The position numbers and the translations under genes were made by a program. Shown here piece after piece: positions 17,617-58,279 of a DNA stretch of 64,000 bases. Source of the DNA: Rhexocercosporidium sp. MPI-PUGE-AT-0058 (Eukaryota; Ascomycota; Leotiomycetes; Helotiales). The stretch's first letter is position 1, and the number at the start of each line of letters is the position of its first letter. Below the pieces are notes generated by a model. The model was not told the origin of the DNA. It searched no databases and saw only the letters and a list, made by a program, of their open reading frames with translations. The stretch is taken from NCBI GenBank assembly GCA_020746875.1, contig JAGTJL010000018.1, positions 682,001 to 746,000 of the forward strand, in the 5' to 3' direction.

Positions 17617-18863
17617 TTATACGCCAATAGCTTTTGCAAAAGCGTCCCCATTGGGCATTCTGCCGAGGTACTCCTCTAAGAACTCCATCTCAGGTCGACT
17701 TCCTCCTCTGCCAAGCACCAACTTCCTGTATCTTCGTCCTTCTTCTCCATTCATTGGATCCTTCGCGAATCGTGTTTGGTATAAGTCGCTAGAATAAACG
17801 GATGCGCTTTAGAGAGTTCGCTATTAAGATTCTATATAAAGTAAACAAATAAGAACTTATATGACGTATATGTAATACCTAGCATCGTACCTTCCAAACA
17901 TATGCGAGAATCTGCTGTGTCTAAATCCTTATTTATACCTTACACCTTCAATTTCTGGGCCGAAAAGACTAGTGGTCTCATGGCGGATGCAATTATAAGT
18001 TACCCTTGAGTTCAAAGCCTTAGCTTCTTCGCTTGACACGGAATATATAGCTATGTCGAACTTCACGAATGAGATTTGTTTTTATATTAATAAAGTCAGC
18101 GTTACTTTATGATTCGCCCTTAGCTTTTGTAAGAGCTCTAATAGTGCTTTTACAGGCGGCTCAGGCACCAAAGGGTTCTCGGCCCTCTAAGACGCCATGT
18201 ATTCTGACGACAAGTGTAAGTAAATGCGTCGACAAGTTTTAAAGAATAATAAGGTCTTAGCAGAAATTCTCGAGTATTCGACTTGGGATTTCGACGAAGT
18301 CTCCGGATATCTTAGTGCCGTATGTTTCGGCATATCTAGTCTTGCTTACCAGATAATGAATACTATGTCCTAGTTCATGATATATTATTATAATACTTCG
18401 GTGTCTAATAAGTATTAGTTTAGTAGCTATTAGTCTTTAAATAGACATAACAAGAAGTGCACTAAGGTATTATCTCCTTCCGTCAGTCGTGTCGAAACCC
18501 TGCTACTTATTAATTAATTTCAAAATTAAGAAGAAGTAATACTTATAAGTTAAAAAGTAATACAGCAAGCATAATCTTTCCTTCCTTGTCTCTTTAATAT
18601 ATTAAGATATAAATACCCTAAGAAGCCACTTCTAAGGGCTTCTTCGTCCTAGATAATATAAACTACTATATCTTCGTGCCAAGTCATAGCAGCTATATCT
18701 TGACCTTGTTTCTTTATAAGAATTCTTCTCGAATCTTCAGAAAGCTTAATAAACATTACTTTAAAGAAAGTTTTAAAAATTCTCTAACAGACCTCAAACA
18801 ATCGCGTTTAGATTAAAGAACTCGGCGATTTTGTTTTAATTAAGATTATTCTCTTACTCTTTA
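17617..18863 (-). pseudogene. M3-family metallopeptidase (MepB/thimet-type), 3' half, split by element B
   Basis: The minus strand encodes the C-terminal half of an M3 zinc metallopeptidase. The zinc-binding HELGH is intact at 18365-18379, in the context HELGHSIHYLV. The third ligand Glu lies 29 residues after the first His (GDFVEIPSRILENFC), the spacing expected for the family. Upstream are FHED-like and GFLGYLYL segments (about 18700-18600). The C-terminus is clean: FAKDPMNGEEGRRYRKLVLG, then PEMEFLEEYLGRMPNG and stop at 17617-17619. A frame change near 17780-17900 may be an intron or an indel. Stops are dense in 18421-18863 next to element B and nearly absent at 17617-17780. M3 peptidases degrade oligopeptides in cytosol or mitochondria. 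The 5' half is at 42169-43278, so the gene can no longer make the enzyme. Confidence 0.92.
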
Positions 18864-19216
18864 TATTACGACCTCCGATGCGCCTCGTATTACCGACACA
18901 GCTATTAAGGCTGCTTTGGTCACGTGGAGGCTGCTTTGCTTAAGGCTGCTTTAGTCACGTAGAGGCTGCTTTACTTAAGGCTGCTTTAGTTACGTGAAGG
19001 CTGCTTTACTCGTAGCATTGCCTTAGCCTAGTAATTATAGCGCTAGACCTAATCGGGAAAGGCTAGAGAGACCCTTTATGTATTTATATTAAAGCTCTTT
19101 CTTATAAAAAGCTTTCCTTTTCTCTTTATTTTTTCTTCTCGATTTTAAGCGTAATATTAAGTTTAAATATAAAGCTAAAGTTAACTCGCCGTATTAACCT
19201 CTTGTAAACCGTAATA
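18864..19216 (+). repeat. 5' LTR of element B
   Basis: A 353-bp LTR starting tattacg (mutated TGTTACG) and ending ccgtaata. It pairs with 41780-42168, which is one 35-bp internal repeat unit longer and keeps the original ccgtaaca end. The 5' copy is the more RIP-mutated of the two. Confidence 0.93.
18908..19010 (+). repeat. Tandem 35-bp units inside 5' LTR of B (three copies)
   Basis: Units of the form aggctgctttagtcacgtag plus aggctgctttactta repeat three times. The 3' LTR has four copies (41824-41961). Repeats in the U3 part of an LTR often hold promoter or enhancer sites. Each unit contains a cacgt-like core, partly mutated. Confidence 0.85.
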
Positions 19217-19559
19217 TAAGAAAAGATTAAAAACCCCTTTACTGTGAAGCGTTATATTTCATTAAGTCTTATGCGTCACGTCTCCTTACCCTTATAATAA
19301 GTTAATAATAAACCTTAATACTTTAGTTTATTTAATAAATAAGTACCTCTTTATTAATAATAGATTGCCTTAAAGAAAGCTAGAAAACCCCTTATTATTA
19401 ACTTACCTTATACAACTTAACGCGCGCTATTCGAACTTCGACTTCGATTTATATTTAATTAATAAATTAATTAATAATCTTAAACACTTCTTTACTTTAT
19501 ATTATTATTACTTCCGACTTCTCTCTTCCGTCGGCGAAGCTTTAAAAAAAGAAGCGCCC

Positions 19560-20910
19560 TCTTACGGCTAAGCTTTATTAATACTTTTATCCTTTCGGTC
19601 GAGACTCTTATAAAAGAACTCAATAACTTTAAAAAACCCGATTCCGATTCGAAAGATAAACCTCAAAACTACTTCGACGCCTCGCCAGAGCCTACCGCTA
19701 TTATAAAAGGCCTTACCCTCGCTTAATAAGTAAAGTAAATTAATTAATTAAGATCTCCGTAAACTTTATTATTACTATTGTTATTAAGTAAGCCTTCGAC
19801 TAATATACTTTTAATAATTTCCGCTAAGAGACTCGCACTCCTTCCCCTTAAAGCGATTAATCGGTACGTGTTTTTATAGTAGACCTTTAGTTAATTACCG
19901 ATTATTACTTATTAAAGCTAAACAATTCGGTTTAAGTCATAAAGCCTTTTAAAGTCAAGTACTCTTGTATTTCCTTTAACGATTATAAAAACGACATCGA
20001 GTATAATACTTAAAAGATAAAGATAAAGCTATTTATAAAAGAGTATTTAAGTAACTTTAAGAGTAAAATATTATAAATTAAGGCTTACTTTTAATATATT
20101 ATTAACGAAGTAAAGATTATTATCTTTTAATATATAAACCCCGAATTTATTAGTACTTTCGAGACTGCCGCCGACGTTTTAACGGCCTTAAACCAGCGAT
20201 TCTTTAATTATAACCGAGTCTAAGTTATTAAGAAAATATATAATTAATTATTAATAAGTAATATAACTTATAATAACTTCTGAGTTAAATTTATCTTTTA
20301 TATTATTACTAATAAGATTACTTACTCTTACTAGTTTAAGAACGTATACGGAAAGGTCTCTCCGGCCTTTAAACGTATAATTTATATAAAAAAGTATAAA
20401 ATAAAGGGAAATTATATAGTCTTAGACGAATTCTTAATTGTTGCGGACCGGGAATCCCGTAATATTATATTAAAAAAGGCCGTAACGATTTATAAAACTT
20501 AAATTAACGTTACTTTTAATAGCTACGACACGCGCGGCATTCTTAAAAAGAAAGGCTGGCGTATAACTTCTTTTACGCCGGCTATAATAATATAAAGACC
20601 TTTAATATTAACTTATAAATTATCGCTAAAAGTTCGCCTGCGCTTGTTATTCTTAGCTTTATTCTTCCGCCGCCTTAAGTCTTTTATACCGCCCTCGGCT
20701 CTTAAAGACGTCTTCTTTAATACTTGCCTCTATTATAGTAAGACTGGCCACTAGGCTAGCGACTGCCTTAAGCGCTAAAGAGATTAAGCCTTTAATAAGT
20801 TAATTTCTAAGCTAGTCGTCGGCGAAAACCTAAAGATTAACGAGTTATTAAAAAACTCTTAAGCCGTAATAAAAACTCATACCTCGGCGTAAGTTATAAC
20901 TTATAAAAGG
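19560..20910 (+). pseudogene. Element B gag with zinc knuckle, RIP-broken
   Basis: Plus-strand translation gives a long gag-like text with many stops. Recognisable parts include FETAADVLTALNQRFFNYNR (about 20160-20215), a run of open frame near 20340-20600 (SPAFKRIIYIKKYK, DEFLIVADRESRNIILKKAV) and a CCHC zinc knuckle near 20720-20770. The knuckle reads CLYYSKTGHQASDC, with its second Cys position now Tyr. Gag builds the particle and binds RNA. This copy is inactive. Confidence 0.82.
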
Positions 20911-20929
20911 ACTTAATATTTAATTTCCG

Positions 20930-21963
20930 CGTTCTTATTAAAAGACGATAATTCTTAATTAATATTAAATTAAAAAGAAATGAATTCTTTATTAAAATAC
21001 TTATATATATTAATTATAAAGTAAATATTTTCAATATAATTAAAACCTCTTTTATATACCGACTCGTTAAGCAATTTAATATTTCTTTTATAATACTCTT
21101 TTAGTTAATCGTCTTAATTAATTATAATAATAAGAAAGGCAAGCCTATTAATACGGCTGTTTTATTTATTTTAACTATTAACTGCCGGCGGATTAACTTT
21201 CTTTTTTTAATAATTAACTTAAGAAATACCGACGTCTTAATTAATCGGAAGTTTTTCGAGTATTATAACTTAAAGCAATCGTATATAAAGAATTATAACC
21301 GGCTAAAATAGCCGTTAAATATACTTATATAGCCGTACTTTAATTAGCGAGTCTTTATCGATATTAACCGTTTTAATAAGTTAATTATTAAGTCTTATTA
21401 ATTCGATGTAAAACAAAAGGACGTCTTCTTAGACTTAAATGACTATCGCCGGAGGTAAGCCAAGATTGCGGCATTTAATAATTCTCTTAAGCTTAAAGTC
21501 TTTATATAACTTATAGCTAGCGTTTTGCCGACTCGATCCTCGAGCTTTATTAGAGAAGTTAAGGAGCGCTTACGTATTATAAAGGATTAATTAAACCCTT
21601 TAATATCTTATAATCCGGGATTATTACTTAAAGACAAAAGAGCTTATAAAGCCCCTCCGGCGAATAACTAGTTTAAGGCGCTTATTATAAAAATCTTCTT
21701 AATATCGGCAGCGGCAATATTTATAACGTACCTCTAACTTAAGAAGGCTAAAAAGAATAAGGCAAAAGCCTTCGTGGCATTAGTATATAAAATCGATTAA
21801 GAGTTAACTCGCCGCCGGCGAGAGGCCTTAAATTAATTAAGTGTCGAACTCGTATCGATAAATGAAGACTTAATCCTAGAGGAAGTCCTAAAGATTAAGT
21901 ACGCGTAGAATAACGAGCTAATAGGCAAAAAGCTCCTTATTAAGTATTAGGAGTATACTCCTT
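20930..21963 (+). pseudogene. Element B protease and pol N-terminal region
   Basis: Following gag, the plus strand shows an aspartic-protease-like segment (about 20980-21270) with text such as NTDVLINRKFFEYY. A linker then runs to the point where element C is inserted. The pol frame resumes at 38249. The catalytic Asp of the protease was not pinpointed with certainty. Stops are frequent. Confidence 0.6.
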
Positions 21964-22146
21964 TGTGGTGTAGAAGTGGATTAAAGCACTGTGAGCAGTT
22001 GTAGTTGAATTAAAGTGATTAATTGTTATTTAAAAGCTTTAAGAATTAGGAGAAAATAATTGTTCTCTTAAAGGCGGTCTATAGTAGCAGAACCTAATTA
22101 AGTCACGTGTAGTGCCAAGAGAGCAGCTGCCCGTGCCTATACGACA
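21964..22146 (-). repeat. 3' LTR of element C
   Basis: A 183-bp LTR matching 38061-38243. The last 60 bases (gagcagctgcccgtgcctat and surroundings) are nearly identical and little mutated in both copies. Confidence 0.93.
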
Positions 22147-22620
22147 CACCCCTTAGGCAATTAACAGTACTAAGCTATTACTATTGTAATTAACTGTATT
22201 AAGCGAGAGCAAATAATAAGAAAGAATTAGGCAAACAAATTTACTTATATACGGTAATTAAGTAAATAACCTGATTATATGAACTAACGATTTTCCTACT
22301 AAACCTAAACCTATAAATACTCGACAATATACAGATCGACTGCTCTCGATTTACTACTTAATCAATTTATTAATTAATCAATTAATCAATTAACTGCTCC
22401 CTTCGACACTATAGGTGTCTTTAAGCGCTCCGCCAGAATCGTTATAAAAGAGCGACGATTTGCTCGCCAGAGCAAGGTGAATGGCTCGATTTTCGATTTA
22501 TTAGTTTCGATTTATTAATTGGAGATCGACTGATTAAAATTAACTAATCGAAAATTAATTAATTAAAGATTACTTAATTAGAGAATAATTATTAACTTAT
22601 AATAAGTCAAAACTATTATA
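22147..22620. other. Noncoding part of element C next to its 3' LTR
   Basis: AT-rich sequence with short repeated ttaattaatcaa motifs and no recognisable frame. It lies between the 3' LTR and the antisense ORF of C. Local palindromic AT runs suggest secondary-structure potential, but no function can be assigned. Confidence 0.45.
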
Positions 22621-23417
22621 GATAACAAGAAGAAGGTCGCCGCTAAAGTAAGACTTTCGGCTGCTTCCGTCCCCGCTCCCGCTCTTCGCCGTGCCGCTGC
22701 TACTCCCCGGGCTTTAAAGCAGTTAATAAGTGCTCGTATAATAATTTATTTAAGTTATATTAATAACGTCTTTTAAATAAAAGGTAGCGGTTAATATTAC
22801 GATACCGTTAAAAAGGGTACTCGCTACTTTACTTACTTGTCTAGCTATAAGTATATAATTGCTCCCGCTGCTACTTAAGCTCCTTTCCTTATATATTATA
22901 ATACGTTAGAAAATAAAGTTAATAAGAAAATAAGTTAATTTAACTGCTTCTTTTTCGCTTTTTAATTTATTATTAATTTTTTTAAGAGTTAAAATAATTA
23001 AGAATCCCGGTCCGTGCCGCCTTTAAAAGTAATAATATTAATAAAGTTATTATTACTAGCGCTACTATTGGTTTTAATAATAGAGTTGCTTTAAGAGCTA
23101 TTAATAGATTCAGAGGTAATAATAAAAATAATAATAATAAAGAAAACGATAAGTTACTCGTTTTATTTTTAAAAAATTAAATTAATTTAATTAATTTCTT
23201 AAAAAAAGAATAAAAGCTTTTGGCTGCTTTTGTAATTTATACTTATATTATTAAAAAAAAGATTATTATTATTACGAGTGCTCTTTTTATTAAGAAAGGT
23301 AATAAGAAAGTAATTAATTATCTTATTATTACTACTATTACTAAAGCTGCTACTGCCGAGGCTGTTGCCAGAGCTACTCGCGCCTATAGCCCGGGTCCTA
23401 GCGTTTTGGCCTTTTAA
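22621..23417 (+). pseudogene. Antisense extra ORF of element C
   Basis: The plus strand, opposite to C's pol, carries a degraded frame of about 265 codons adjoining the 3' LTR region. It opens with an Ala/Pro/Arg-rich N-terminus (KKKVAAKVRLSAASVPAPAL, then RRAAATPRALKQLISAR, about 22625-22735). Aromatic-rich text follows (YYDTVKKGTRYFTYLSSYKY near 22800-22855). The C-terminal 65 codons (23220-23417) are uninterrupted and end AYSPGPSVLAF-stop. Stops in the middle fit RIP of CAA, CAG or TGG codons. No known domain is recognised. Its GC content is higher than the surroundings, and its position mirrors the antisense ORFs of A and D. Confidence 0.55.
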
Positions 23418-23419
23418 GT

Positions 23420-24070
23420 TTACTTATAGAGTTGTTCTCATTCTTAAGTAAGAGGCTTAAGCTACTCGCGTTAAGGAGTTAATTAATATAATAATTAGTG
23501 CTTTAAGCGAGTTAATTCGGGAGGTTTTAGGCCTTCTTCTTTTTAATAAATAAGTTACTCTTTTGTTTTTTAAGGCTTAAGAACCTTTTATTCTTTAAGT
23601 ATCCTCTTATATTTTAAAAACTAAAACTTGTGTTTACCTTTAAATTAAAGAATTATTAAAAGTAATTAGCTTTTTAAAATATAATAATTTATATCTCCGA
23701 GCTTAATTAATTTTTAATAAAATAAAATTATAAATAGAAAATTATAAATAGAAATTTATAAAAAAGAAATTTATAAAAAAATATATAATAATATAAATAA
23801 AGCTTTTTAATTAAAAAATAAGTTTATTATATAATTAGTTTAAGAATAAATAAAAAGTAAAGAATATATATAAAAGACTACTTTAAAACGAGTTTCTTAA
23901 AGGAATTACTTTAATTAAATACGAATATTTATTAAGTTAATAAGAGTAATAAATGCTTTAAATTTTTGCCGAGAAAGGTTTTTAATAAGTCCGTTAGCCG
24001 GTATATAACTTATAAAAAGATATTTTATTATAAAAGTGCTCTTTTAAAACTCTTAGCGTAATTATATATT
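23420..24070 (-). pseudogene. Element C pol 3' end (downstream of the D1 insertion)
   Basis: This should be the end of C's pol, by position the RNase H region. Its sequence is too RIP-damaged to read motifs with confidence. The last five bases (atatt, 24066-24070) are the left duplication of D1. Confidence 0.5.
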
Positions 24071-24260
24071 TGTCGTACAGAAGTGGAGCAGGCTTTTAGT
24101 AGTTCAAGAGCTCTACGATTAACGTAAAGAGTAAGGGTTTAAAAAGATATATTAAAGTAAGCGTTACCTTCTATAAAAGAAGACTGTAACCCGAGTATAT
24201 ATATACGTAAGTGCTTACGAGAGTATATATATAACTAGTAGACTGCGCTAGGGCGCGATA
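24071..24260 (-). repeat. 3' LTR of D1
   Basis: A 190-bp LTR matching 32159-32348 and 55938-56126. It begins TGTCGTACAGAAGTGG. The terminal gcgcgata is a mutated GCGCGACA. Confidence 0.93.
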
Positions 24261-25479
24261 TACCCTTATAGTAAGGCTCCGTTATATAAACAAGCCTTGT
24301 TATTTAAAGGCGTATAAATAATTAAGAAATATAATATAAGCTCCTCGAGTATATATATTAGTTTTTAATAAAAGCATAACGTCAAGTAATAAATTAATAC
24401 TCTTAGAATACTATAATAAATGAAAATATTAATACGCGCTTTAAAAATATAATATACGAGAACTTTATATATTAATATAAATAGTTTATTAAGCAATTAA
24501 TATTAATAATAAATAAGAATATAAATACGCATTTAAATTATATGTAATTAAATAAATAAAATCTAAAGATATAATTAAGCTATAGTAATTAAATAAATAA
24601 GATTTTAATTATTATGTCTAACGCGTGTAAATCGTAAGTTTTAAAAGTAAAGCTAAAGTAAGATTCGGTCTGTAGTTAAGATCTTGTGCCGTCCCGTTTA
24701 ATTATTAAGTTATTAAGCTATAATTAATGAATTTAGTCCTTTTAAAGTGATTATTATATATAATAAAAAGCCGTAATAGTATGTACCAGCCTTTTATTAG
24801 CTTATGTAATGCGCCGCCTCCCGAGTTAATAGGTTTATTATTAATTTAAGCGTCCCGTTCCACAGTAGCGCGATTATAACTACCCCTAAGAATATATATA
24901 TATTAACCTTTGTATTATTATAATTAACTTTTATTTAATATTAACGCACTTTATACTCGCGTGCTTATTTATTTGCTTATTTCTTTCTTTTATTTTTTAA
25001 TCTTTTACTTCTTTTAGTAAATTCTCTTTAATTATTAGCCATACCTCTTAAAGCTTTTAGAACAGCGACTGCGCGTATTAATAATTAAATCGTAGCTCGT
25101 TAAGTAAGTTCTTCTTTAATTTAATTTCTTAATTTCATTTTAAGTAACCTTAATACCGTTAAATTAATTGCTAATAATTATATTATAAGATTTTAAAGAT
25201 GAGTTTAATAATTAAAAAGTATTTAATAATAAGCTTGTTAATAAGCTTTTTAATAATCTTTCTCTTACTTATTTAATCGTTAAAATGAATCTTAAAAATA
25301 ATTAATAATATTTTTCTTTATATAAGAATGAAAATACGTTTATTAATAACTTTAATAATAAGCTAATTCTCTTTTAATCTTCTCGTGCCAAGTTAAGCTC
25401 GCTATTTAAAAAGACTCCCACGCGTTCTTTTAATGCTCTACTATTATTAGTCATATTAAATAAAAGCGTCATTATATTA
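24261..25479. other. D1 sequence between 3' LTR and antisense ORF
   Basis: About 1.2 kb of AT-rich element sequence, also present in D2 (about 56127-57350). Open stretches occur on the plus strand from about 25040, with repeated aataagctt motifs, but no domain is recognised. It may include the 5' part of the antisense ORF. Confidence 0.45.
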
Positions 25480-26235
25480 AATAAAAATGACTTTTAATAC
25501 ACCCCTTTTATTTCGCGCGTTTCGCGTCTTAATTCGACTTTCTCTCTTACCCCTCCTCCTACTTTTAAAACTCGCACTCGTTCTTTATTAACTTTAAAAA
25601 AGCGCAAATCGTCTCGCATTCTATTTAAGCCTCGCTCTCCTATCAAGCACGCTCGAGGTATATATATACTATTTCAAAGCTTGCTTTTTATTAATAATTT
25701 ATTTAATTTATATTAATTAAAATTTAAGAAAAGAGTTTGCGGATTCTTATTTATTATATATTTACGCTATTATTCGTGACCGTAGTAATCGTAAATACTG
25801 CTTCGCTAATACTCTCGCTATTAGAAGTCGATGCTATAATTACACTTTTAATTATAAGTGCAATTCCGTTATAAGAAATATACTTAAGTATAGTAAAAGA
25901 TTAATTATAGCTATGGACTTTAATAATAAAAAGGTATAATAATCGCACTATAATTAATCGAGTATTTCACTAATTAATTTATAAAGTATTAAGAAGTATA
26001 AAACTATTTTAAAAGCTTTAATAAAAGACTTGGCGAGTAATAATAAGTTTAATAAAGATATAAAATTAAATCTTTTAATACGCTTTTAAAAGCTAAGTTT
26101 AAAGCGTAATAAAAAGGATAATTTTAATAATAATATTAATATTAATACGAAATCTTTAATAAAGTTTAATAATCTTATATAAAATTTAAAAAAGTTCGCG
26201 AAGGTCTTAAAGATAATAACTACTCGCTAATTTAA
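25480..26235 (+). pseudogene. Antisense Cys-containing ORF of D1
   Basis: The plus strand, opposite to D1's pol, encodes a degraded protein that is also recognisable in D2 (57350-58105). The N-terminal part is rich in Ser/Thr/Pro/Arg (KTRTRSLLTLKKRKSSR, then PRSPIKHARG, about 25560-25660). A central Cys segment reads NRKYCFANTLAIRSRCYNYT followed by YKCNSVI (about 25790-25880). D2 has CH-type residues in the same place (SGHKCNSA). A charged, Asn/Lys-rich C-terminal part (KALIKDLAS, then KLSLKRNK) ends near 26230. Where the two copies differ, it is mostly by RIP-type transitions. The function is unknown. The Cys pattern suggests a small metal-binding region, but this is not shown. Confidence 0.6.
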
Positions 26236-26390
26236 GCTTAGGTGGATTTTTGCGCTTTTAGTGGATTATTTATAAGCTTAAACTGGATTTAAACGGACTT
26301 TACTTAAGCTCGGGCCGGATTTAAATAGTTTTTACTTGAGCTTAAGCTGAATTTAAGTGGACTTTGCTTAAGCTCGGGCTGGATTTTGCA
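26236..26390. repeat. Tandem repeat in D1 (gcttaagctcgggctggattt-like units)
   Basis: About three imperfect units of roughly 48 bp contain actggattt, ggactttacttaagctcggg and palindromic gcttaagc. The same array occurs in D2 at about 58105-58260. It separates the antisense ORF from the end of pol. Confidence 0.75.
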
Positions 26391-26399
26391 TTTACGTTC

Positions 26400-29300
26400 G
26401 GCGTTTTTAAAGCGCAAATACTTAAAATATTAAATTAAAAAAGTTTTTATAAATAAAAGATCGCATAAAAATATTCTTAATATACTTTTAATAAATATAT
26501 TTAAAGCTCCTTAACTTAAGATTAATAATTATTAAAGTTTAAAAATACTTTAAAAAGCTCGAATTTCTAGCGAGATAAATTCTTTATAAGTCTATTAATA
26601 AGTATATTAATAATTAAAAAATATATTACTTTAAATAATCCACGAGTATACTTTTACTTAAATTATATATTTTAAATATTTATATAATAAAGCTTAATAA
26701 TAATCCTCTTAATATTATTTAGAATTAATTTAATCGTTTATTAATTATTATAAAAAATCTCTTAAGTCTTATAAATATTAAGAGCTAAGTTTTAAAAGAA
26801 TCGTTAAAAAGCTATAACTTCTTTTTTAATATACTTTAATATTAGCAATTCCGTTTTAATAATCGACGTAATAATTATAAATTGCCTTAATACTTTTTAA
26901 ATTACTAGCCCGTTAAATAATAAAATTATATAACCTTAAGATAACTTCTGAGTTTCGACGTTATTTATAAAAAATATATTTAAAGTAATATAAAGCGCTC
27001 TCTTTTAATTACCTCCGTATATAATACCTAAAAAGCGCGTATTAAACAAGTAATAAATAAGCTAATATATAATTATAAAATGCTTTAAACTAAGATTTAT
27101 CGCGAACTATAAGAGTTAAGCAATTGCAAAGGCTACGTTTAGTCTTATAATAATCGTTATATATAATACCGACTCAATTCTCTTTTAATAAACTTTAATA
27201 TATTTCTTTAAAACTTGTTTTTTATATTTAATAAAATCGATTTAAGGGAGCGATATCGTAAGACACCTCTTATTAATTTATTTAAACTTTCGAGTGATTT
27301 TCTTAATATATTAACTATAAATTAAAGAAATAATCTTACGCTTTTTATTACGTATTATTTTAATCCCTAAGAATTATTTAATATCTTTAAAATCATATAT
27401 ATTATACGCTTAATTTAATCGCTTAATAAAATCTTATCCGAGCTTTAAGTCGTCTCGGTAATAAAGCACTTAAATATTATTTATATAAAAAAAAATAAAG
27501 ATTTTATAAATAAAGTCTATGAATATATACGGTTCCTCCGAATATAAAAACAGCCTTAAATTTATTAACGTTTTACTAATATACTTATACTATAAATACG
27601 GAAAATCACGTATCCCGTAGAAAGCGTGATTAACTCGTAATACATATCTAAGTTTATTAAAACCTAAAGGGAATCTATAATATATAGTTTTATTATTTAT
27701 ATTTTAAAAAGCGTTAATAAACGCGTTAATTACGTCGAAACACTTAACTTCCAAGTCAAAATAAGCTACGAGCGCTATAACAATTCGAAAAGATTTAATT
27801 AAGAGCGTATTAACGTATATAAAGACAATTATTAATTTATTTTAAAAGTCACCTCGCATAACAATTCGGGATCTATATCTTAAAATATATCCCTTTAGAT
27901 CTAGCTTATACTTAAAAACCCACATAAGCGGGATAAGTATTAATATAATACTTAAATTAAACACTTTTAAAGTCTAATAACCTTATTTATTTATTATCCT
28001 TATTTTTAAGCTTATATCTTCTTTAAATTACTCTTTTATTAAGTAATTCTTAAAATCGCTTTATTATTTTAATTTAAGTAAAAGATTTTAAACTTTAATT
28101 TTTAAAAGTAAAATCTTCCCTTTTAGTAATTAACGGCTCGTTTATATTATTATTATAATTACTTAATATATAATCTTCGTTAAATCTCGAAGATTATTTT
28201 ATTCTTTTAATAATATATATTAATTAAATATAAGCCCTTAAAGCATCTAATCGACTTCGGACTAAAGATTATTATATTAGTCGAGGATTTAATTACCCCC
28301 GAGATTAGGCTTACTTTCGAGCTTAAGGTTGCCTTTATTAAGACGTATTTATTTAAAGATAATTATAAATATAATAAATACTTTATTACTTTAATCTTTT
28401 TATAATCTTTCTCTTTTTTTTCTACTTTTAATTAACTTTTTTACTTTTATTAAGCTTTTAATAAATATACTTAATTTTAATTAAGCTTCTTTTATTATAA
28501 TTTAAAAACGTATTACTTTCGCTTATCCTACTTTCGTCGTCCGAATACTTTATACTTTAATCTAAGGATGCGGTATTAAAATCATTATCGAAAACTCCTC
28601 TTATAATCGAGGTCTCGACGGTATTTAAATCTCGATGCGTAATAATTAAAACGAATCCCGCGCTTAATCTTATAATACGTTCGAATCTCGATTAATAAGT
28701 TATATACTCTTACGTAAGTCGAATGCCTTTAAGTTATATTTTATACCTAAAGTAAACTCTCGATCTAATACACTCTCTTTTAATTCCTTACTTTATTTAA
28801 AAAGGCCCTTTAAAATAAAAGTATATTCCGGAGTTAAAAGTCCATTTATTATACTCGAGCTACTAATATGTCTTTTTACCCCCGAGTTCTGACTTTTAAA
28901 GCTTTTAATTAATTTTTAAATTCATTTAATATATAATTAAAGCAAGTCTTTACTTAAAAGATTCGCATTATTTTCCTCAATAATCATATTTTTAATAATA
29001 TTCTTAATGATTTTAACTTAATTTATAATAGACTTATTCTCTTTAATAAGATTATAAATAAACTTAACTTTTTAAATCGTAATCTTTATTTCTTTACTTA
29101 AAGTAATATAAAAGCTATTTTCGTTAAAGCGCACGTTACGCGTAATAATTATTCTATCGAGACGTAACACTTAAATCTTATAAATATTAAAAACGTAAAA
29201 ACCTATAAGATATTTAATATATATACGCGCAATTATTTTAAACTCTTTTTTATCTTATTCTTTAATTCTCTTTATTATTAATAAATACGCTTTATAATTA

Positions 29301-32158: not shown

Positions 32159-32348
32159 TGTTATATAAAAGTAGAGTAGGCTTTTAATAATTCAAGAGCT
32201 TTATAATTAACGTAAAGAGTAAAGGTTTAAAAAGATATATTAAAGTAAGCGTTACCTTCTATAAAAGAGGACTATGACCTAAGTATATATACACGTGAGT
32301 GCTTACGAGAGCATACACATGACCAGTAAACTGCGCTAGGGCGCGACA
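32159..32348 (-). repeat. 5' LTR of D1
   Basis: A 190-bp LTR, partner of 24071-24260. It retains the original gcgcgaca end and the cacgtgagtgcttacgagag region. The duplication atatt follows at 32349-32353. Confidence 0.93.
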
Positions 32349-32353
32349 ATATT

Positions 32354-35300
32354 TTAAATATTAACGTGGCGTAACTTAGTAAAAATACGCTAATTTTCCT
32401 TAATAATTAACCGAATCGTTTATTAATTATTATAAAAAATTATTTAAGTTGCTCTTATATTAAAGCGTAATTTTTAAAAGAATCGCTAAAGTATTATAAG
32501 TTTCTTATTAATACGCTTAACTTTAAAAAGCTTTACTTATATTATAAACGTAATAATTATATTTTATAAAGCTACTTTTTAAAAGATTAAACTTTTAAAA
32601 AGTATAAAAATATATTTATTAAAAGATTGCCTTATTTTAATATTATTTATAAAAGAAGTATTTAATATTATTATAAAATAAGAGTCGCGCAGTTTATAGC
32701 TATAAGTAATCGCTAAGAAACGAGTGCCGAAAAGGTAACGAATTATTTAATTAACTATAGTTAAGTACTCTTAAGAAAGATTAATTAAAAAGTGAAAAAG
32801 CCTTAAAGTAATAAAAATAACGTTTACGCGTAATATAATTATAATATAAAGTATTAATTTAACCTTTTCTTAAAACTCCTTAATTTAAGATAAAGTAGTC
32901 TGTTTTTAACTCTTTAGTAGCTCGACTTAAGATAATAATATACTTAGGCAATTTCTATTTATTAACTCAAATCGAAGAGTAACCTTTTAAATATAAGTAT
33001 TATATATTAAAGAGATAATCTTTGCTAATCGATTTTTAATAATACGAACGCTTAAGAACCACTTTATTTATTCTCCTTTGGTAAGCTTATATATTATATT
33101 TAAGCCGTCGATAATTAATTTAGCGTCTTTAAAAGCCGAAGTGTGGTAAAACACCTGAATATCGTCGATATAAAATATCATAAATACCGTACGTTGCTCG
33201 TTTATAAATATTAAGCCTCTTCTTTATAAGCGATTAATCTTAAAGTTGTTAAAGTATAAGTAAAGTCACCGTATTATAGCGCCGGTGAGTCCTTAAGTCC
33301 GTAAAGTGCGCGATTAACTTTTACTACTATTCCGTCTTATTTAAAACCGTTTAATAAATAATAGCGTACGCGAGTATTTATTTTACTTTATTTAGCGTTA
33401 ATAAAGGCATTTATTATATTAAATTAAATCATTTTTAAATTAAATTAAGTTATAATAGTTATAACGGTTCTAAAGAAGCGAGTAATTAAAGTAGCTATAT
33501 ATATTAATAAAATTGACGTTTTAAGCTATAAGTCTTCTTTTACAACGACTCGGGAGCGATAGTAAGTTAAATACCTTAACGAATTGACTTTAATATAAAA
33601 TACTTATTTTAAGGGAATTAATTACTCGGTAGTAAAGGAGTATTTAACGATTCTTTAATAATTACGCGACTTAAAGTTAGTAATCTCTTTAATAACATCG
33701 GCTCGGAAGTATTCTCTTAACGGGTAATTCTTAAAGTCTTTTTAATTTAATAAATTCTTAGGCATTTATAATTAATAAATCCGTAAGAGCTTAATTAATT
33801 ATCGAATTTCGATATTTTTAAGTATAAACGTTAATATAATAACGTGAATTACGCTTAAGTCTTTTCCGTCTTTTTATATTAATTCTTAACTAAATTAGAA
33901 AGTCCTTAGAAAATCCTTTAAATACTCGCGGTTACTTAACGGTTATAATAATTTCGTAATTAACTCTTTAATAATTATTATATAAACGCTTCGATTTAGT
34001 TTCGTTACTTTATTACTGACTCAAGTCTTTCGACTTTTATTAATTACTTAATCTTTTATTTTTTTCTTTTTAAAAGGTTTAAGTAAGCCGGAATTTAATT
34101 TAATTAAAGCCGGGAATAATAAGCGTAAATCTAACTCTTTATCTTCTTTTAATTTTAATAATTATAAATATTCTTTGTATTTAATTACTTAAGATAAAGC
34201 TTTTAATTACTTAAGGCCGATATTTTCTTTAAATACTCCCCGACGCTTAAGACCGCGCTTTCGGTTGTATAGCCTTCTAAAGTAAATTATAACTTATAAT
34301 ATCGACTTCCGCTTAAGGCTTATATTACTTTAAAAGTTTAATATATTACGTAAGACACCTCTCTTAATTACGCTCTTAAACGCTAACTATCTTAAAGTAT
34401 TAACTCATTTTAAGACTTAATTAAAGTGCTTATAAATAAGAAGTCTAATATTCTTTCTTAATTATATTACCCCCGAGTTCTTATTAACGAGCGATTAAAT
34501 AAAGTTAAAAGCTATTAAATTAATTAAAAGTAGCGTATTTACTTTTATTAACTTAATTAAAAGGGGAGCAAATAGCTTTACCTCCGAGTTTAAAAGCTTA
34601 ACTAAAGGTTTTAATACCTTTAAGCTCATAGGCTCGTCGACTTTTATAACGCTTATTACTTTACTTAATTGTTTTCCGTTTAAAGTAATAAACGGTATTT
34701 TTAATTTTAATATATTAAATACGCTTAGTCGGTTAATTATAATAAAACTAGCGTTTTAATTTCCTTTTTCTTCTTTTAGTATTTCTGTAAAATCTTTTAA
34801 TATTAAGCGCGGCTAGCCAACCGCTCTTTTTATATTTAAAAAGCTTAAATAAAAAAGGGTTTCGTTAAAAGTAATATTCCGAGTTATTATTATATATTAT
34901 AATTAAAGCACTTAAATTTTATAAATATTAAATAAAACGTATTTAATTAAGTAATTAAAGTGCGCTCGCGAGTTGACTTTAAAAGCTCTCTTTTAACGGA
35001 GAGCTTCTCGGTCTTTAATTATAAAGTAAGCTTTATAGCCGTACGCATATAAGTTGCTTTAGTCAGGCCGTAAATCGGTTATTAGCTTTAGCGTGAGCTT
35101 AAAGTCGTAATACCGAAAATATTACTTAAACTAAGCTTAAAATACTTCGTTCGGACTCTTAAAGCTTTTACGAGTAAATAGACTTATATTATAGAAAATA
35201 ATTGCCGCTATTATTAATTCCGTTTAAAGCGCTTAAAGTAAATTAACAAAGAGGCGCATCTTAATTAATTTATTAATTATTTTTTTTATTTACGCGCTCA

Positions 35301-38060
35301 GCTCTTTTATTAAGTTAATATATATATAAAGAGGTAAATTCAATATTAATATTACTCTCCTTATATTACTTTTTATATTTAATTGATTTATTAATCTTTA
35401 TAACTAAGGTGTCGTTATTTTAGCGTATTTTGTAAACCGAAAGCCCGAATTAGCGTCTTATTTACGCTTTAAATAATTTAAAAGTATTTAAGACGGCGAT
35501 TAACTTTTTAGTTTTTAAAAGCCGCTCGTAGAATTTCTTATTATATTTGTCTTTAATTAATAAAAGTCAGTTGTTTTCGTTAAAACTTATTAAAAAGTCG
35601 AATAAATCCTAAAAAATACGGTAAAAAGGACGGGTAACTGTTTTTTTTTAATTAATAACGACTTATTACTTATTATATAATAGCTACCGCATAATGCTCG
35701 TATTCTAACCGAATTAAACTTTAAATCTCGACGTTATATGTATTTTTTATTAAGTTTTTTAAAGCTTTCTTTTTAAAGTAACTTACGCGTAAATGCTATA
35801 AGTAGGCTTCGTCGACTTATAGCTTTAAATATTATTTACTCGACTAAAAGCCTTAGCAAATGCTCCTTTTTAGCGTTAAAAATATTAAAAAGTTATAATT
35901 TAGGCGAATTAAAATGCGGTAAGTAATTAAAGAAACCGAAAAGTAATTAAAAGGCTTATATTTAAAGAAAGCTAAATTAAATTATCGCTGTAATTACTTT
36001 AAAATTAGACTGTTTTTAGCTATTCTCGTACGTAAAATGCAATTTAAATTATTATATTAAACTCTTACTTATAAAAGGCGAGCTTTTAAAATAATATTAA
36101 TATTAAAGCTTTTAATAATAGCGACGTTTAAAAGGATTAAATCGCTTATATTTAGTCCGTTAAGATTATAAAAAATACTTTTAAAAACTTAAGTACCGCG
36201 GCCTTTAATTATTAAGCTTAACGTTCCGGCCTTAACGCTATTATCCGTAATAATTTTAATAAAGCTTTTAGGGACGAGGAGAGCTTTTGAATTTATTAAA
36301 TAAGTAATAGCTCCGTTATCGAGTAAAGTATTCTTTGCGAGCGGATAGCGATTCATATTTATAATAGCGTATATCTTTATAGTAGCGAGAGCTTTGTCGA
36401 GAAATTTAAGGCTTATAAAGTAAATTTAAACGTTTTTAAGATATTTTGCTTTTACTAAAGCAACTGGCTTTAAAATCACAGGAGCTACTAATGCCTGAGT
36501 TAAAAAGAAATTATCGGAAGGTAGTCCGGAAGCTAATTACGTTATTAATAGCATATTTTTACTGAGTTTAGTAATTTCTCGGCAGAGGTTAAAGAAGTCG
36601 CTCTTTAGTCGAAGTCGAGTTTCTTTAATTTCCTTTATTAATAATAAGTTTTTGAGATTGCTCGCCGTCGAGCCGTCGTAATAATACCGAAGTTTATAAT
36701 AATTAATAGCTTTATAACGGTAAAAGCGATACTTATATAGGCAAGTATTTACTCGCGTATTTAACGACTAGTTTCGTTAAACCGACGAAGTTACGGGAGT
36801 ATTTAATCTTTTTTTAAGAGTAATATATAAGCTTATTATTTTTTATTATTTAAAAGTTGTAAATAATTCCTTATTAAGAGTAAATAATTAATTAACGTAA
36901 TTAAGTAAAGAATACTAATTTATTACCTCGAGAGCATTATCTCGTAGTAATTTAAAGTGCCGTTCGCGCGCCTATTCCGGTGCGAGCTTCTCTTATACCG
37001 CCTTAATAAAGTCAAGTATTACTAGCGGTCTTTTAACGTTTAGTAAATCGTATAAGAGAGCATTTTAATAAGCCGCTTTTCATTTTTAAAGCTATTTCTT
37101 AAGATTAACTCGCCTTACTTTAATAATAGCGAGCTTCTTTTTATAAGTAAACTATATTAATATATAAGCACTTATTTTCAAAGGGGCGTAATCTTTCTTA
37201 AGGATTTAAAAAAGTAATTAAAGAGTCCATGACTTTAATTAAAGGTCTCCGTTTATTATCTCGGTTAATTACTCCTTTTTTATATAAGCTTACTCGTTCT
37301 CGCATTCCTTAACTATTCCTTAATAAATAAAAAGATTAATTATCTCTTAAATTTATTTATAAGCTGCCTTATAAGCTCGAGCTTTTTCCGTTTATTATAC
37401 GAGCTTCCTTACGTGTTCCCTTATAAAAGTAATATATATTAAAGTTATATTCTTAATTATAGCTTTTGCCGGTAATAATACGCTCGGCTTAAAGCTTTTT
37501 TTTATAAAGTCGCGAGTATCTTCGTCCTACTTTGCTTAAGCTTAAAAGTTATACTTAATAGCTTCTTTATTTTATTATACTTTTAAATTATTTAATAATA
37601 AGGGTTTCGGTTCGGCGTCGAAAAGGTTAAAAGTAATTAATAACGCAGGGTTTATTAAATTTTATATTTTATAAAAGATATAAAAAGATTTAAACGCTTA
37701 ATATTAAGGAGTCTAAGTGCGCTTATTATAATTAAAAGGAGTTCGATTATTTAAAGAAGAAGCTAAAATTAAGTTTATTATAATAAAGAGGTTGCTTTTG
37801 TGAGCTTCGAGTATTCGATAAAGGAAGAAGGATTAAAGAGGTATCGAGTCTAATTGCTCGGCTTTTATATTCGTTTAGAGTAAAATAAAAGAGTTAATAG
37901 AAAATAACGGTATGAATTACACTTTATAATAAGGTAGAAAACTTTATAACGTATAGTAAATGCTCTCTACTTATAAACTTGCCTTATAAGCTTTATTTAA
38001 ATTAATAGCGTATAAAGGGAAGAATACTAACTTAATAGCTTTATTAACGGGGCTTATAAC
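32354..38060 (-). pseudogene. Element C gag-pol, 5' part: gag, protease, integrase, RT
   Basis: Minus strand from the right: gag (about 38050-36500, poorly readable). Protease LLDNGAITYLINSKALLVP follows near 36330-36270. A GAG-pre-integrase segment near 35810-35700 reads HLRVSYFKKKALKNLIKNTY, then LEYEHYAVA; one zinc-ligand His and one Cys are now Tyr. The integrase core is not resolved in detail. RT (about 33480-33140) contains VNAFINAK, VNRALYGLKDSPALWYGDF and an intact catalytic YIDD. D1 cuts the sequence beyond 32354. Confidence 0.88.
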
Positions 38061-38243
38061 TGTAGTATAGAAGTGAATTAAAGCATTATAAGTAATTATA
38101 ATTAAATTAAAGTGATTAATTGTTATTTAAAAGCTCTAAGAATCAGGAGAAAACAGTTGTTCTCCTGAAGGCGGTCTACAGTAGCAGAACCTAATTAAGT
38201 CACGTGCAGTGCCAAGAGAGCAGCTGCCCGTGCCTATACGACA
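38061..38243 (-). repeat. 5' LTR of element C
   Basis: A 183-bp LTR matching 21964-22146, beginning tgtagtatag and ending acgaca, immediately before the duplication tcctt at 38244-38248. Confidence 0.93.
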
Positions 38244-38248
38244 TCCTT

Positions 38249-41200
38249 TCTTTTCCCGGCGAGCCTTTAATAAGTTATTAATATATTACTAAGGCGTAAA
38301 CTATTAAATTAAGTTTATTAAAGAAAACGACTTATTCTTTAAACTTTTCCGGCGTATGACTAAAGAATAATTATTAAAGATTAAGCGGTATATTATCGAT
38401 AACTTATATAAAGGTTTTATCGAGCCTTTTAGCGCGCTATATGCGGCTCTTATTCTCTTCGCCAAGAAAGCCGATGGTAGTCTTCAGTTATACGTCGACT
38501 ATCGAAAGCTAAATGCCTTATTTAAGAAGGACCCGTACTTAATTCTTTTAATTAATAAAATAATAACTTATATTTATAAGGCAAAGGTCTTTATAAAGCT
38601 CGATATTTAGCAAGCTTTTTACCGCATCCGTATGTCCTCTAAGAGCGAAGATTATACGACTTTTTGTACCTAATATAACACGTATAAATATAAAGTCCTT
38701 TCCTTTAGTCTTATAAATAGTTCGGCGACTTTTTAGCGATTTATTAACGATATTTTAATAAAATACTTAAACGACTTTTACGCGGCTTATATAAATAATA
38801 TCCTTATATATTCGTTAACTCTTAAGGAATATAAGGTTTATATTAAAAAAGTAATAGTAATATTATAAGTACATAAACTTTAAGCCGATATTAAGAAATC
38901 CGAGTTTAACGTATAAAAGACGAAGTTCTTAGGTTTTATTATCGGCGTCGATGGCGTGAAAGTGGACTTAAAGAAGATTAATATAATTAAAGACTAGCGA
39001 TACGCTAATAATATATAGGGTATATAAAGCTACCTTGGTTTCTGTAACTTTTACCGCCGGTTTATTAAGGACTATAATCGTATTATACGACTCCTTATAA
39101 TATTTACCGGAAAAGACGTTCTCTTTAAATTTAATAGCGTTTATAAAAACGCTTAAAAAACTCTCCGGGAAGCCCTCTAATTTACGCCGGTTCTTCGCTA
39201 TTATAACCTTATTAAATAAACACGGCTAGAGACCGACTCTTCCGACGGAGTCGTCGCGGGAATCTTATCTTAATTTTAAAAGGACGATACCTTTTACCTT
39301 ATAGGATACTTCTCGAAGATAATAACGGACCTCGAACTTAATTACCCGATTTACGACAAAGAAATACTGGCGATTTTCCGGTTATTTAAATAATATTACT
39401 TAGAGCTTTTAAGTGCCTAGAAAAATATCCTCGTTTATATTAATTACCGAGCTCTAAAGTACTTTGTAATTATTAAAGACCTTACGGCTAGGTAGGCTCG
39501 ATAGGCTGAGTTCTTTACGGACTTTTATTTTACGATTATATATTATACCGGGACGACTAATACGTTAGCTAATATTTTATCTCGACGGGATTAAGATGTC
39601 ACGGTTATAAAGGCATAAAAGCAGGTTATTTATAATTAATAATTAATTCCGACTGACAAAATCGACTCGCGAGTCGCTAGCGACCTCTAACTCTCCGCCG
39701 TCGATCCTATAGACGCCTATATTAAAGTCGTAAAAACAATACTTTTAGCACTTATAAAGGCTATAATCCTAGACTATAATATTAAGCCTTGTAACGAGTC
39801 AGAGCTAAAACCTAAGCTTAATATAAAAGTACTAATCGACTCGAAAATCCTTACGCCGGAAGAGCTTAACCTTAACTTTATAATAACTTATAATATCACA
39901 GAATATAATATTATTAATTAAGTGCTTTTAATTAATAAGTCGTCCCCCTTGCTAAAGCCTCTTTAATAAAAAGCTAGGGAGTAATTATTAAATTATAAGT
40001 TAATAAACGATAAACTACTTTTTTAAGGACGCTTAAAAGTGCCTCTAGAGCCGCCGGAGCTTTATATAATACTTATTCGCTACGTACACTTATAACCCTT
40101 AGTAGCACACGTAGAAATCGAAAAGATAAAGGCATTACTTAGTCGTAAATATTATTAAAACGGCCTTATTACGGATATAGCCTAATACGTGGTAAATTAT
40201 AATTATTCCCGATAAAAAGCCCGTAAGGATAAAACTCTTAATTTCTTATATCTTTTATTAATCTTTGCTCGGCTGTATTAATACTTTATAATAGACTTTA
40301 CGAAGCTATTATTAAATAAGCACAATTATAACTTCGCTATAGTTATCGTCGACCGCCTATTTAAAAAGCCGGTCTTAATATTTTATAATAATATAATTAT
40401 TATAAAAAATATAATAATCCTTTTCTTTATTTATTAGATTTAATACTTCGGCATGCCGGACTTTATTGTCTTAAACCAAGGACTTTAATTTGTCTCCTCT
40501 TTTTAAAAGGAATATTATTATATCCTCGGAATTAAAGTAAAGCTTACGACGACGTATAACCTAAACGTCGATAATTAAACGAAGGTAACGAATTAATATA
40601 TTAAGTAGCGGCTCCGCCTCTTTTATTATTATTATTAAAATAATTAAAGCGACCTTTTATTAATTATAGATATCGCTTAATTATTATTGTGGTGGGGTTG
40701 ACCTCAGAGGCCCATTTGTCACGTGATTGAGCTGCATCTTGCTGTATTTAAGATAGACTCTAGGGCAACATCCTTTAAGGACAATAACGATTTTTATTAT
40801 TATAACTTTTCCTTCTTATTCAAACTATACCTCTCCCCTCCTTTAATAGATTATACTCCTTAGATATGTGATATCTCTAGTATTCGTCAAATGGGTATTT
40901 CCTACGTTTACCCTCCGGCACTTGCTTTGCTACCCTCTTGTTGTGTGCTTGGTGTTTTCCCCTCCACATTATTACCGCACAAGTCTTTAAGTAACTTATT
41001 TTTTTTTTAAATTACTTAACGGCGTTAAATTAAGGACTTCCTAGGATTTAATTAACTTAAAGCTTTTAGCTACGGCAATAGAGAAACTCAATCGTAAGAA
41101 AGCTTTATAAATAGTATTATAAATAAAGGAAGTTATAAAAGTTATATAATCGTTACTAAAGGCTTAATAAGAGAAAATAAAACGGCTGGCTAATTGCAGT

Positions 41201-41700
41201 CGCCGTGCCGTCGACTAGGACGTTAGCGACCTAGTATTAGTTGACACTCGGAATTAAAATATCGACCGACTCTTAAAGAAGCTGTCGGACAAGTAATACG
41301 GACTAGTTAAGGTACTTTCGCAAGAAGGGGAGAGTTAAAAGGTAAAACTATTAAAGAGTTAAATTATATATTTTGTATTTTATACTTATTTATTACGGAA
41401 GTACGTCAACAACCTTTTATTAGGCTAAGCCAGATAAACGCTAATACTAATACAGCTCTTATTTAATTAAGAAGAATAGGAAATTAAAGTTATTTTAGGC
41501 TCGAAGTTAATGAATCGAAAGCTTTAGTATTATATTAAATGGCTAGGCGCCGACGAAGACTTGGAGTAATATTTATGCTCGAATATTATAACGGCCCCTT
41601 ATTTAGTTAAGGCTTTTTATATAAGGCATAAAGATAATAAGAGGGTCGTAAGGCTTTTAAGAGCTTTACTAAAGTAATTAAAGGCTTTTAATAATAAAAT
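38249..41700 (+). pseudogene. Element B pol: RT, RNase H, integrase, chromodomain
   Basis: Plus strand: RT with FAKKADGSLQLYVDYRKLNA (about 38462-38522), the catalytic box YINN at 38788-38799 (both Asp now Asn) and LGFCNFYRRFIKDYNR near 39030-39080. RNase H follows with RLETDSSDGVVAGILS and YDKEILAI (about 39230-39370). Integrase zinc and core regions span 39850-40680. The integrase continues after solo LTR E with VSDLVLVDTRNQN near 41230 and SLLRKYVNN near 41390. A chromodomain-like C-terminus reads EWYL-like text with YNGPLFS near 41560-41620. RIP stops are frequent. Confidence 0.88.
40688..40968. mobile_element. Solo LTR E, nearly free of RIP, inside element B integrase
   Basis: A 281-bp segment of ordinary composition stands out sharply in the AT-rich element. 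It starts TGTGGTGGGG and ends CCCCTCCACA, near-complementary ends. The direct repeat ttat occurs at 40684-40687 and again at 40969-40972, so the duplication is 4-5 bp with the fifth base ambiguous. The integrase reading frame of B runs up to the left edge and resumes at the right edge. It keeps many CA and TG dinucleotides, so it inserted after the main RIP episode or was too short to be recognised. Its parent element is not in this window. Confidence 0.82.
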
Positions 41701-41779
41701 TAATGATTATAAAAAGCTAGAAGACGATAGTCCTATAATTACAACTGCGCGGACGCAATTCTTTAAGAGGAAGGGGTAA

Positions 41780-42168
41780 TATTACGACCTCCGATGCGCC
41801 TCGTATTACCGACACAGCTATTAAGGCTGCTTTAGTCACGTAGAGGCTGCTTTACTTAAGGCTGCTTTAGTTACGTAGAGGCTGCTTTACTTAAGGCTGC
41901 TTTGGTTACGTGGAGGCTGCTTTACTTAAGGCTACTTTAGTTACGTAGAAGCTGCTTTACTCGTAGTATTGCCTTGGCTTAGTAATTATAGCGCTAGACC
42001 TAATCGGGAAAGGCTAGAGAAACCCTTTATGTATTTATATTAAAGCTCCCTTTTATAAAGAGCTCTTCTTTTTTTCTTTATTTTTTCTTCTCGATTCTGA
42101 GCGTAGCATTAGGCTTAAATATAAAGCTAAAGTTAACTCGCCGTATCAACCTCTTGCAAGCCGTAACA
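41780..42168 (+). repeat. 3' LTR of element B
   Basis: A 389-bp LTR, one 35-bp unit longer than the 5' copy, ending ccgtaaca directly before the duplication cttta (42169-42173). It keeps more C and G than the 5' LTR. Confidence 0.93.
41824..41961 (+). repeat. Tandem 35-bp units inside 3' LTR of B (four copies)
   Basis: Four units of aggctgctttagttacgtag plus aggctgctttactta, against three in the 5' LTR. LTRs are identical at insertion, so the copy number changed after integration. Confidence 0.85.
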
Positions 42169-43278
42169 CTTTAACCAGCTTTATATAAAATAACTAGTCT
42201 TAGAGAAACAACCTGTCGTCGATATCGACTTCTGCCGCTTCTTATAAGAGTAGATGCGCTCTCTTGATTATTCTTAATTTGTCCCTGCTCGATTTCGAAG
42301 CTGGTGCCGTCTTTTCTTAGATATTATTAATTAAAGCTAAAACTCCGTCTATTACTATTATCTGCCGATTCTAGATCACTAAATCAGCGTGAGACTTATA
42401 TCTTAATAATTCAGTATGTTCCGCTCTTAATTCAATTATCTCCTAAAATAATAATATATTATTAAGACACTTGTTCTTGTTGCTAAAGAACATTCGCTTC
42501 CGAGTCTCGGGGTTGATATAATTCTTGAAAATCAAATCTAAATCTATTATTCTAAAAGTAATCTTATATTTTTCTTTGTTCTTCCTTTCTCCTTTCTTTA
42601 AAGCCTTAAGAGCATCAGTAAGAAAGCTATTTAGCTTTTTAATAAAAAACCAAATCCTACTATTCTCTTACCGAATCCGTTTGCTACCCTCGGCCTTAAT
42701 ATCATCGAGCCTCTTCGTAACGATTTGGATTTTGTCTTTTACTAGTTCATCTATAAGTATAGTACCGCTCTTAACCAATTAAGACAATTTCTTATCCAAA
42801 TAATATTAATTATCTTGATATAACACCTCGCCTTGTCTTTCACCGCCTAGAATAGCGAGTAAATCTCTGGCCTCCCTACGATCTCCTGTCCGAACTCAAA
42901 TAGCAACTTCCCGCACTCGATAGAGGCATTTCTTAATTCTTTAGATAGAGATACAGATCTAAAGAGTGCTATAAGAGAACTAGTCTTTATGCGGGTGTTG
43001 CGGTCGTGGATCCATGGCAGAACGAAGTTTACAAATATAGCTTCTAAAGATGGGATCTTAGCGAGGTTATCTAGTGTTACTCGTGAAGCTGTAACTGCCG
43101 CTCTCATAAGACTAAGCAAATCGGAGGGTGTCTGGTTAAAGGCTACTAGTAGTTGCGGTAGCTCACGAAGCTTAGAGGAAGGCATCTTGAGCTGAGGTAG
43201 TGCGGGGTATATTCGTTGCTGAGTGTTTTGGAAAAATCTCAGAGATGGAGAAGAGAGGCGGCGAATACTAGTCCTCAT
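42169..43278 (-). pseudogene. M3-family metallopeptidase, 5' half, split by element B
   Basis: The minus strand from ATG at 43278 gives an intact 143-codon stretch (to 42847). It has a basic, Ser/Arg-rich start (MRTSIRRLSSPSLRFF) that could be a mitochondrial targeting sequence. Helical text typical of the M3 N-terminal domain follows (NFVLPWIHDRN, SKELRNASIECGKLLFEFG). Beyond 42847 the frame continues with RIP-like stops. It includes INPETRKRMFFSNKNKCLNN (about 42525-42465) and IELRAEHTELLRYKSHADLV (about 42440-42380), which match the family's NPETRK...NENK and Y.SHA motifs. The frame then reaches element B at 42168. The catalytic half is at 17617-18863. Family assignment is firm; the exact member is not certain. 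Confidence 0.9.
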
Positions 43279-58260: not shown

Positions 58261-58279
58261 TTTATATTTAGCGTTTTTA

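What the first reader, a model, noticed from the sequence alone, without database searches (positions are those of the whole stretch)
17617..43278. An M3 metallopeptidase gene split by a 23.3-kb nested retrotransposon block
The 5' half (42169-43278) and the 3' half with HELGH (17617-18863) are on the same strand and in the right order. They are separated exactly by element B, and the 5-bp duplication cttta sits at both breakpoints. An ORF caller would report at most a 143-aa orphan and miss the gene.
Basis: partly seen in the sequence, partly recalled or inferred. Interest (0 to 1): 0.75.

Follow-up and report, generated by a model that had tools for sequence, protein, structure and literature searches.

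The report
Oligopeptidase pseudogene split by nested retrotransposons
In what is very probably a root-dwelling fungus, a second copy of an ordinary peptidase gene was cut in two by a retrotransposon that took in two more, and is riddled with the C-to-T mutations with which fungi silence repeats; the split is real and clean, but of a known kind.

Summary
Confirmed. The two pieces are adjoining, non-overlapping parts of one M3 metallopeptidase gene (MepB/thimet-oligopeptidase type), interrupted by a 23,305-bp block (18864-42168) flanked by the 5-bp duplication CTTTA. The block is three LTR retrotransposons inside one another, each with its own 5-bp duplication (CTTTA, TCCTT, ATATT); a reverse-transcriptase piece of the outer one resembles Ty3. 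The genome is very probably Rhexocercosporidium sp. MPI-PUGE-AT-0058. An intact relative (719 aa, three exons) lies on contig C2. (2) Differences that RIP does not explain are mostly silent, so the copy was under selection for much of its history, while the three LTR pairs show 0 transversions in 726 sites. (3) It is probably no recent duplicate of C2: combined, its codons group with the Leptodontidium gene, also with RIP codons masked, so it is an older paralogue or a segment from a sister lineage. Each process has precedents; interest is modest.

The parts
42169..43382 (-). 5' half of the M3 peptidase pseudogene with upstream flank; relatives' start codon at 43185
17394..18863 (-). 3' half of the M3 peptidase pseudogene (coding end about 17617) with HELGH motif, both intron positions and 3' flank
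18859..18863 (.). target-site duplication CTTTA, left copy
42169..42173 (.). target-site duplication CTTTA, right copy
18864..42168 (+). B1, outer LTR retrotransposon with everything nested in it (23,305 bp; about 7.0 kb without B2)
18864..19216 (+). B1 left LTR, 353 bp
41780..42168 (+). B1 right LTR, 389 bp, with 36 extra bases
38371..38607 (+). B1 open piece resembling Ty3 reverse transcriptase (4ol8, E=3.5e-5)
21964..38243 (.). B2, second LTR element, inserted in B1 (LTRs 21964-22146 and 38061-38243; duplication TCCTT at 21959-21963 and 38244-38248)
24071..32348 (.). B3, third LTR element, inserted in B2 (LTRs 24071-24260 and 32159-32348; duplication ATATT at 24066-24070 and 32349-32353)
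40688..40968 (.). about 281-bp insertion in B1 with TGTGG...CCACA ends, solo-LTR-like
43761..45134 (+). neighbour gene remnant, 74% identical to C2:1815090-1816457, same order and relative orientation as on C2; no C>T excess
49205..49573 (.). further block matching C2:1814038-1814388 in the same order

Best explanation
A second, once functional MepB-type M3 peptidase gene on contig C10 was interrupted in exon 1 by a Ty3-type LTR retrotransposon (B1) that made a 5-bp target duplication. B2 then inserted in B1 and B3 in B2, giving 23.3 kb. As a repeat the block was hit by a RIP-like process (C>T on either strand), and the mutations leaked about 0.7-1.1 kb into the gene on both sides, making stop codons. 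Shown: one gene in two adjoining halves; three nested LTR elements with three target duplications; a C>T excess that declines from both breakpoints; an intact relative on C2; mostly silent differences outside the C>T class. Inferred: that the insertion came before most of the C>T damage, that RIP and not another process made it, and that no product is made now.
For: Halves abut on the C2 gene at L004 1854|1858, inside exon 1 (844-2169). Three 5-bp duplications stand exactly at LTR ends. The B1 parts on each side of B2 match a second, separate copy almost without a break, at L030 3303-6408 and 6415-8836. C2 C/G to window T/A: 344, reverse: 101, in 2350 aligned sites (binomial p=4.5e-32), against 98 and 87 in 1279 sites of the one control, the neighbour (Fisher p=3.5e-9). 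Rate per C/G site 0.356 within 700 bp and 0.210 beyond 900 bp, permutation p=0.0005 together and on each side. Each of the 22 in-frame stops is created by C>T or G>A. The C2 region has a negative RIP index in 40 of 40 1-kb bins. LTR pairs: 71 transitions, 0 transversions in 726 sites, against 142 transversions in 2350 gene sites. Nonsilent-to-silent ratio relative to the possible changes: 0.14 (reverse transitions) and 0.17 (transversions), against 0.57 for C>T-type changes.
Against: The order of events is not proven: both copies of the target duplication carry the same differences from C2, which could mean that the gene was already mutated, though about 60% of nearby CpA sites are hit (17 of 28 and 19 of 33 in the first two bins of each side), so two independent hits are not unlikely. 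Reverse transitions (0.070 near, 0.126 far, p=0.001) and transversions (0.062 near, 0.095 far, p=0.006) rise with distance, probably because the far bins hold more non-coding flank, so site make-up may add to the gradient. The left-hand repeat ending near 17363 shows little leakage into 17394-17663. CpA is preferred (153 of 341) but CpT, CpC and CpG are hit too. C2 is a reference, not the ancestor, so changes on its own branch are counted in. The selection ratios sum both lineages. Only one control stretch was used. No strain with an empty site, no reads and no expression data were at hand.
Confidence: 0.85

Rival explanations
1. The gene was first mutated by RIP, because it was a duplicate or lay beside older repeats, and the retrotransposon later landed in a dead gene.
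For: Both target-duplication copies share the same differences from C2. The gene has a relative on C2, and RIP acts on duplicates (recalled). A high-copy repeat lies left of the gene, ending near 17363.
Against: RIP of a duplicate should hit both copies (recalled), but C2 is clean. The damage surrounds the insertion point about equally on both sides (0.361 and 0.352 within 700 bp) and is weak next to the left repeat.
Confidence: 0.2
2. On origin only, compatible with the best explanation: hidden paralogy. An old duplication came before Rhexocercosporidium and Leptodontidium split; this fungus kept both copies until recently, the relatives kept the C10 type.
For: 'Window copy sister to Leptodontidium plus Cadophora sp. 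M221' is not rejected (combined data, AU p 0.18-0.23). The segment is colinear with C2, and the neighbour remnant groups with its C2 copy (bootstrap 83). Counting only polarised sites the signal is weak: 8 sites shared with Leptodontidium against the outgroups, 6 shared with C2 against them (frames set by P0001).
Against: It needs loss of the C2 type in two relatives; the best tree puts the window copy with Leptodontidium inside that clade (bootstrap 86).
Confidence: 0.5
3. Assembly artefact: two unrelated contigs or alleles joined across repeats.
For: The separator is repetitive, and the assembly could not be checked with reads.
Against: Target duplications match at three nested levels, and the flanks fit one gene to the base.
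Confidence: 0.03

Closest known systems
RIP 'leakage' from degenerate transposons into single-copy genes of Leptosphaeria maculans (PMC2973834; passages seen)
   Same: C>T damage with stop codons in genes beside RIP-affected repeats, falling with distance; the paper cites N. crassa leakage to at least 930 bp, close to the 0.7-1.1 kb here
   Different: Here the repeat sits inside the gene and the damage runs both ways; the gene is a peptidase with a relative on another contig, not a single-copy effector
Nested LTR-element clusters with target duplications in Mycosphaerella graminicola (PMC4522978; passages seen)
   Same: Base LTR element with further insertions and a 5-bp duplication, clusters of 7.5-63 kb, low GC
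   Different: The passages seen tell of genes inside or near clusters; none of them describes one gene split by a cluster
MepB / thimet oligopeptidase genes of Helotiales (P0001-P0011)
   Same: Family, order of parts and HELGH motif
   Different: This copy is broken; ten of these eleven predictions are 687-723 aa long (P0005 is 526 aa)
Zymoseptoria tritici RIP study (PMC10294615; passages seen)
   Same: Looked at mutations next to RIP-affected transposons
   Different: Found no leakage there, so leakage is not universal

Membership tests
Peptidase M3 (MepB/thimet oligopeptidase type) | Match to Pfam PF01432 over the domain | tested here: met
   Four pieces cover profile 6-107 and 212-456; the 6-107 piece alone is below the curated cut-off. 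The rest aligns to the C2 gene as DNA
Peptidase M3 (MepB/thimet oligopeptidase type) | HEXXH zinc motif (recalled as defining) | tested here: met
   HELGH read in the 3' half
Peptidase M3 (MepB/thimet oligopeptidase type) | Open reading frame for a working enzyme | tested here: not met
   22 in-frame stops, three one-base frameshifts in exons and the 23.3-kb insert
LTR retrotransposon (B1, B2, B3) | Paired LTRs with TG...CA-type ends and target duplication | tested here: met
   Three pairs, three 5-bp duplications; B1 LTRs begin with TA and one ends with TA, as expected after C>T change
Ty3-type element, B1 | Ty3-like reverse transcriptase | tested here: met
   79-aa piece matches 4ol8 and the Ty3 Gag-Pol 7q5b, E=3.5e-5 and 1.2e-4. 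Against it: 0 of 10 open pieces of the block match an LTR-element family in Pfam
Ty3-type element, B1 | Integrase downstream of reverse transcriptase | not tested
   Only short open pieces remain
RIP | Directional C>T/G>A excess, CpA preferred | tested here: met
   344 vs 101; CpA 153 of 341 sites, CpT 88 of 325, CpC 59 of 267, CpG 44 of 200
RIP | Dependence on the RIP pathway in the sexual cycle (recalled) | not testable with these tools
   no crosses, no mutant of the pathway

The most novel reading that the evidence does not exclude
The C10 segment (17394-45134, possibly to 49573) did not arise by duplication inside this genome but came from a Leptodontidium-like lineage by hybridisation or transfer, worked as a second peptidase for a time, and was then silenced by retrotransposons and RIP.
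Probability: 0.3. Interest if true: 0.5.

Novelty: new member of a known kind. Interest (0 to 1): 0.3.

Why it matters
It is a clean case of gene loss in a fungus with RIP-like mutation: an old gene copy that was under selection, a younger nested insertion, and silencing mutations that seem to spill from the repeat into the gene. It also shows what ORF calling misses, since the longest ATG ORF left has 143 aa. If the foreign-origin reading holds, it would show how an acquired segment decays.

Tried and rejected
Recent duplication from C2: rejected by AU test on the combined data (p=0.022 all codons, 0.018 with C>T-type codons masked) and by the 3' half alone (p=0.020), but not by the 5' half alone (p=0.21). 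A copy older than the split of P0001, P0002 and P0003: rejected (p=0.0006 and 0.003). Retrocopy: rejected, both introns are in place. RIP aimed at the gene pair: unlikely, C2 clean. Pfam scan of 10 open pieces of the block: no LTR-element family. The 357-aa ORF (45692-46765) has named relatives of 42-57% identity elsewhere (Cadophora gregata 54, Oculimacula 57, Leptodontidium sp. MPI-SDFR-AT-0119 53), less like it than its 76% (DNA) relative on C59, so it lends no support to a Leptodontidium source. First borders for the B3 LTRs were wrong (38 apparent transversions) and were redrawn from the TGTCG...CGACA ends. The last step (RIP index of C2) failed with a file error; the tables used were printed before it, and the index was computed. 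Paper searches showed no title or abstract start on this locus; beyond listings, only passages of three papers were seen.

Full report
What is there. The window is C10:682001-746000 of a 62.7-Mb genome in 60 contigs. The intact relative of the gene lies on a contig of 2,439,245 bases, the contig length listed for the MepB protein of Rhexocercosporidium sp. MPI-PUGE-AT-0058 and for its neighbour protein; so the organism is very probably that fungus (Helotiales). Its life as a root endophyte is recalled, not looked up. Peptidase_M3 matches the window in four pieces on the minus strand. The best relative in the genome is C2:1829039-1831734, a gene of three exons whose translation equals the public protein P0001, 719 aa. 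The best-scoring solved structures for P0001 are neurolysin and thimet oligopeptidase. The 5' half aligns to L004 1854-642 and the 3' half to L004 3337-1858: adjoining and in order.

The block. LTRs 18864-19216 and 41780-42168 bound 23,305 bp, with CTTTA on both sides. Inside lies a second element, 21964-38243, with 183-bp LTRs and TCCTT duplications, and inside that a third, 24071-32348, with 190-bp LTRs and ATATT duplications. A second copy of B1 begins 3.3 kb right of the window and matches the outer parts at L030 3303-6408 and 6415-8836, with no 16-kb gap between them, which confirms B2 as an insertion. A further insertion of about 281 bp with TGTGG...CCACA ends sits at 40688-40968. The B1 LTR matches many other places (46 matches, 40 of 248 candidates scored). 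An open piece at 38371-38607 resembles Ty3 reverse transcriptase.

Decay. Against C2, C/G to T/A changes outnumber the reverse 344 to 101 in 2350 aligned sites; in the neighbour at 43847-45134, the one control, the numbers are 98 and 87 in 1279. The rate falls with distance from both breakpoints, while reverse transitions and transversions rise somewhat. There are 22 in-frame stops in the exons, each created by a C>T or G>A change, and three one-base frameshifts, besides a 3-base insertion and a 6-base deletion. The C2 region has a negative RIP index in 40 of 40 1-kb bins. This is the pattern described as RIP leakage in L. maculans (PMC2973834, passages); it was sought and not found in Z. tritici (PMC10294615, passages).

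Timing. The three LTR pairs differ by 71 transitions and no transversion in 726 sites, while the gene copies differ by 142 transversions in 2350. The insertions are therefore much younger than the split of the copies, unless gene conversion has kept the LTRs alike. Differences that RIP does not explain are mostly silent or fewer in the nonsilent class than chance gives: transversions 66 silent, 54 amino-acid changing, 1 that alone would make a stop (ratio to the possible 0.17); reverse transitions 66 and 19 (0.14); C>T-type changes 147, 141 and 25 (0.57). These counts sum both lineages, so they show that selection held for much of the time, not until the last moment.

Origin. Four blocks (17394-18859, 42173-43382, 43761-45134, 49205-49573) lie in the same order as on C2:1831734-1814038, with a fifth, weak one that overlaps the third. 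Each half alone has its best tree with Leptodontidium sp. 2 PMI_412 (bootstrap 71 and 66; combined 86). With every codon masked that shows a C>T-type difference from C2, which favours C2, identity is 409 of 443 to Leptodontidium, 393 of 444 to C2 and 392 of 443 to Cadophora sp. M221, and grouping with C2 is rejected at p=0.018. Against this stand the 5' half alone, which does not reject grouping with C2 (p=0.21), and a count of polarised sites that is nearly even, 8 to 6. The neighbour remnant groups with its C2 copy (83), with no Leptodontidium sequence to compare. An old duplication followed by opposite losses, or transfer from a sister lineage, would fit.

Verdict. The observation and its reading are right. 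The thing is a well-preserved example of known processes: insertion, nesting, RIP-like mutation and its leakage.

Noticed in passing
window 55867-64000, running into L030 1-357 (to C10:746357): A second copy of the B3-type element, 85% identical over 8.1 kb.
   Followed up: partly
C10:749303-756005 (L030 from 3303): A second copy of the B1-type element just right of the window, without the 16-kb B2 insertion.
   Followed up: partly
G000:C6:1270515-1271105 (L007) and G000:C12:3046431-3046829: Two more partial M3-like frames elsewhere in the genome, perhaps decayed or partial relatives.
   Followed up: no
window 45692-46765 and 1655-2536: A 357-aa ORF without Pfam match that has a 76% DNA relative on C59, and a kinase ORF with an 81% DNA relative also on C59.
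   Followed up: partly
window 17300-17363: End of a high-copy repeat (40 other places among the candidates scored) about 30 bp from the left end of the peptidase segment, with little sign of leakage into it.
   Followed up: no
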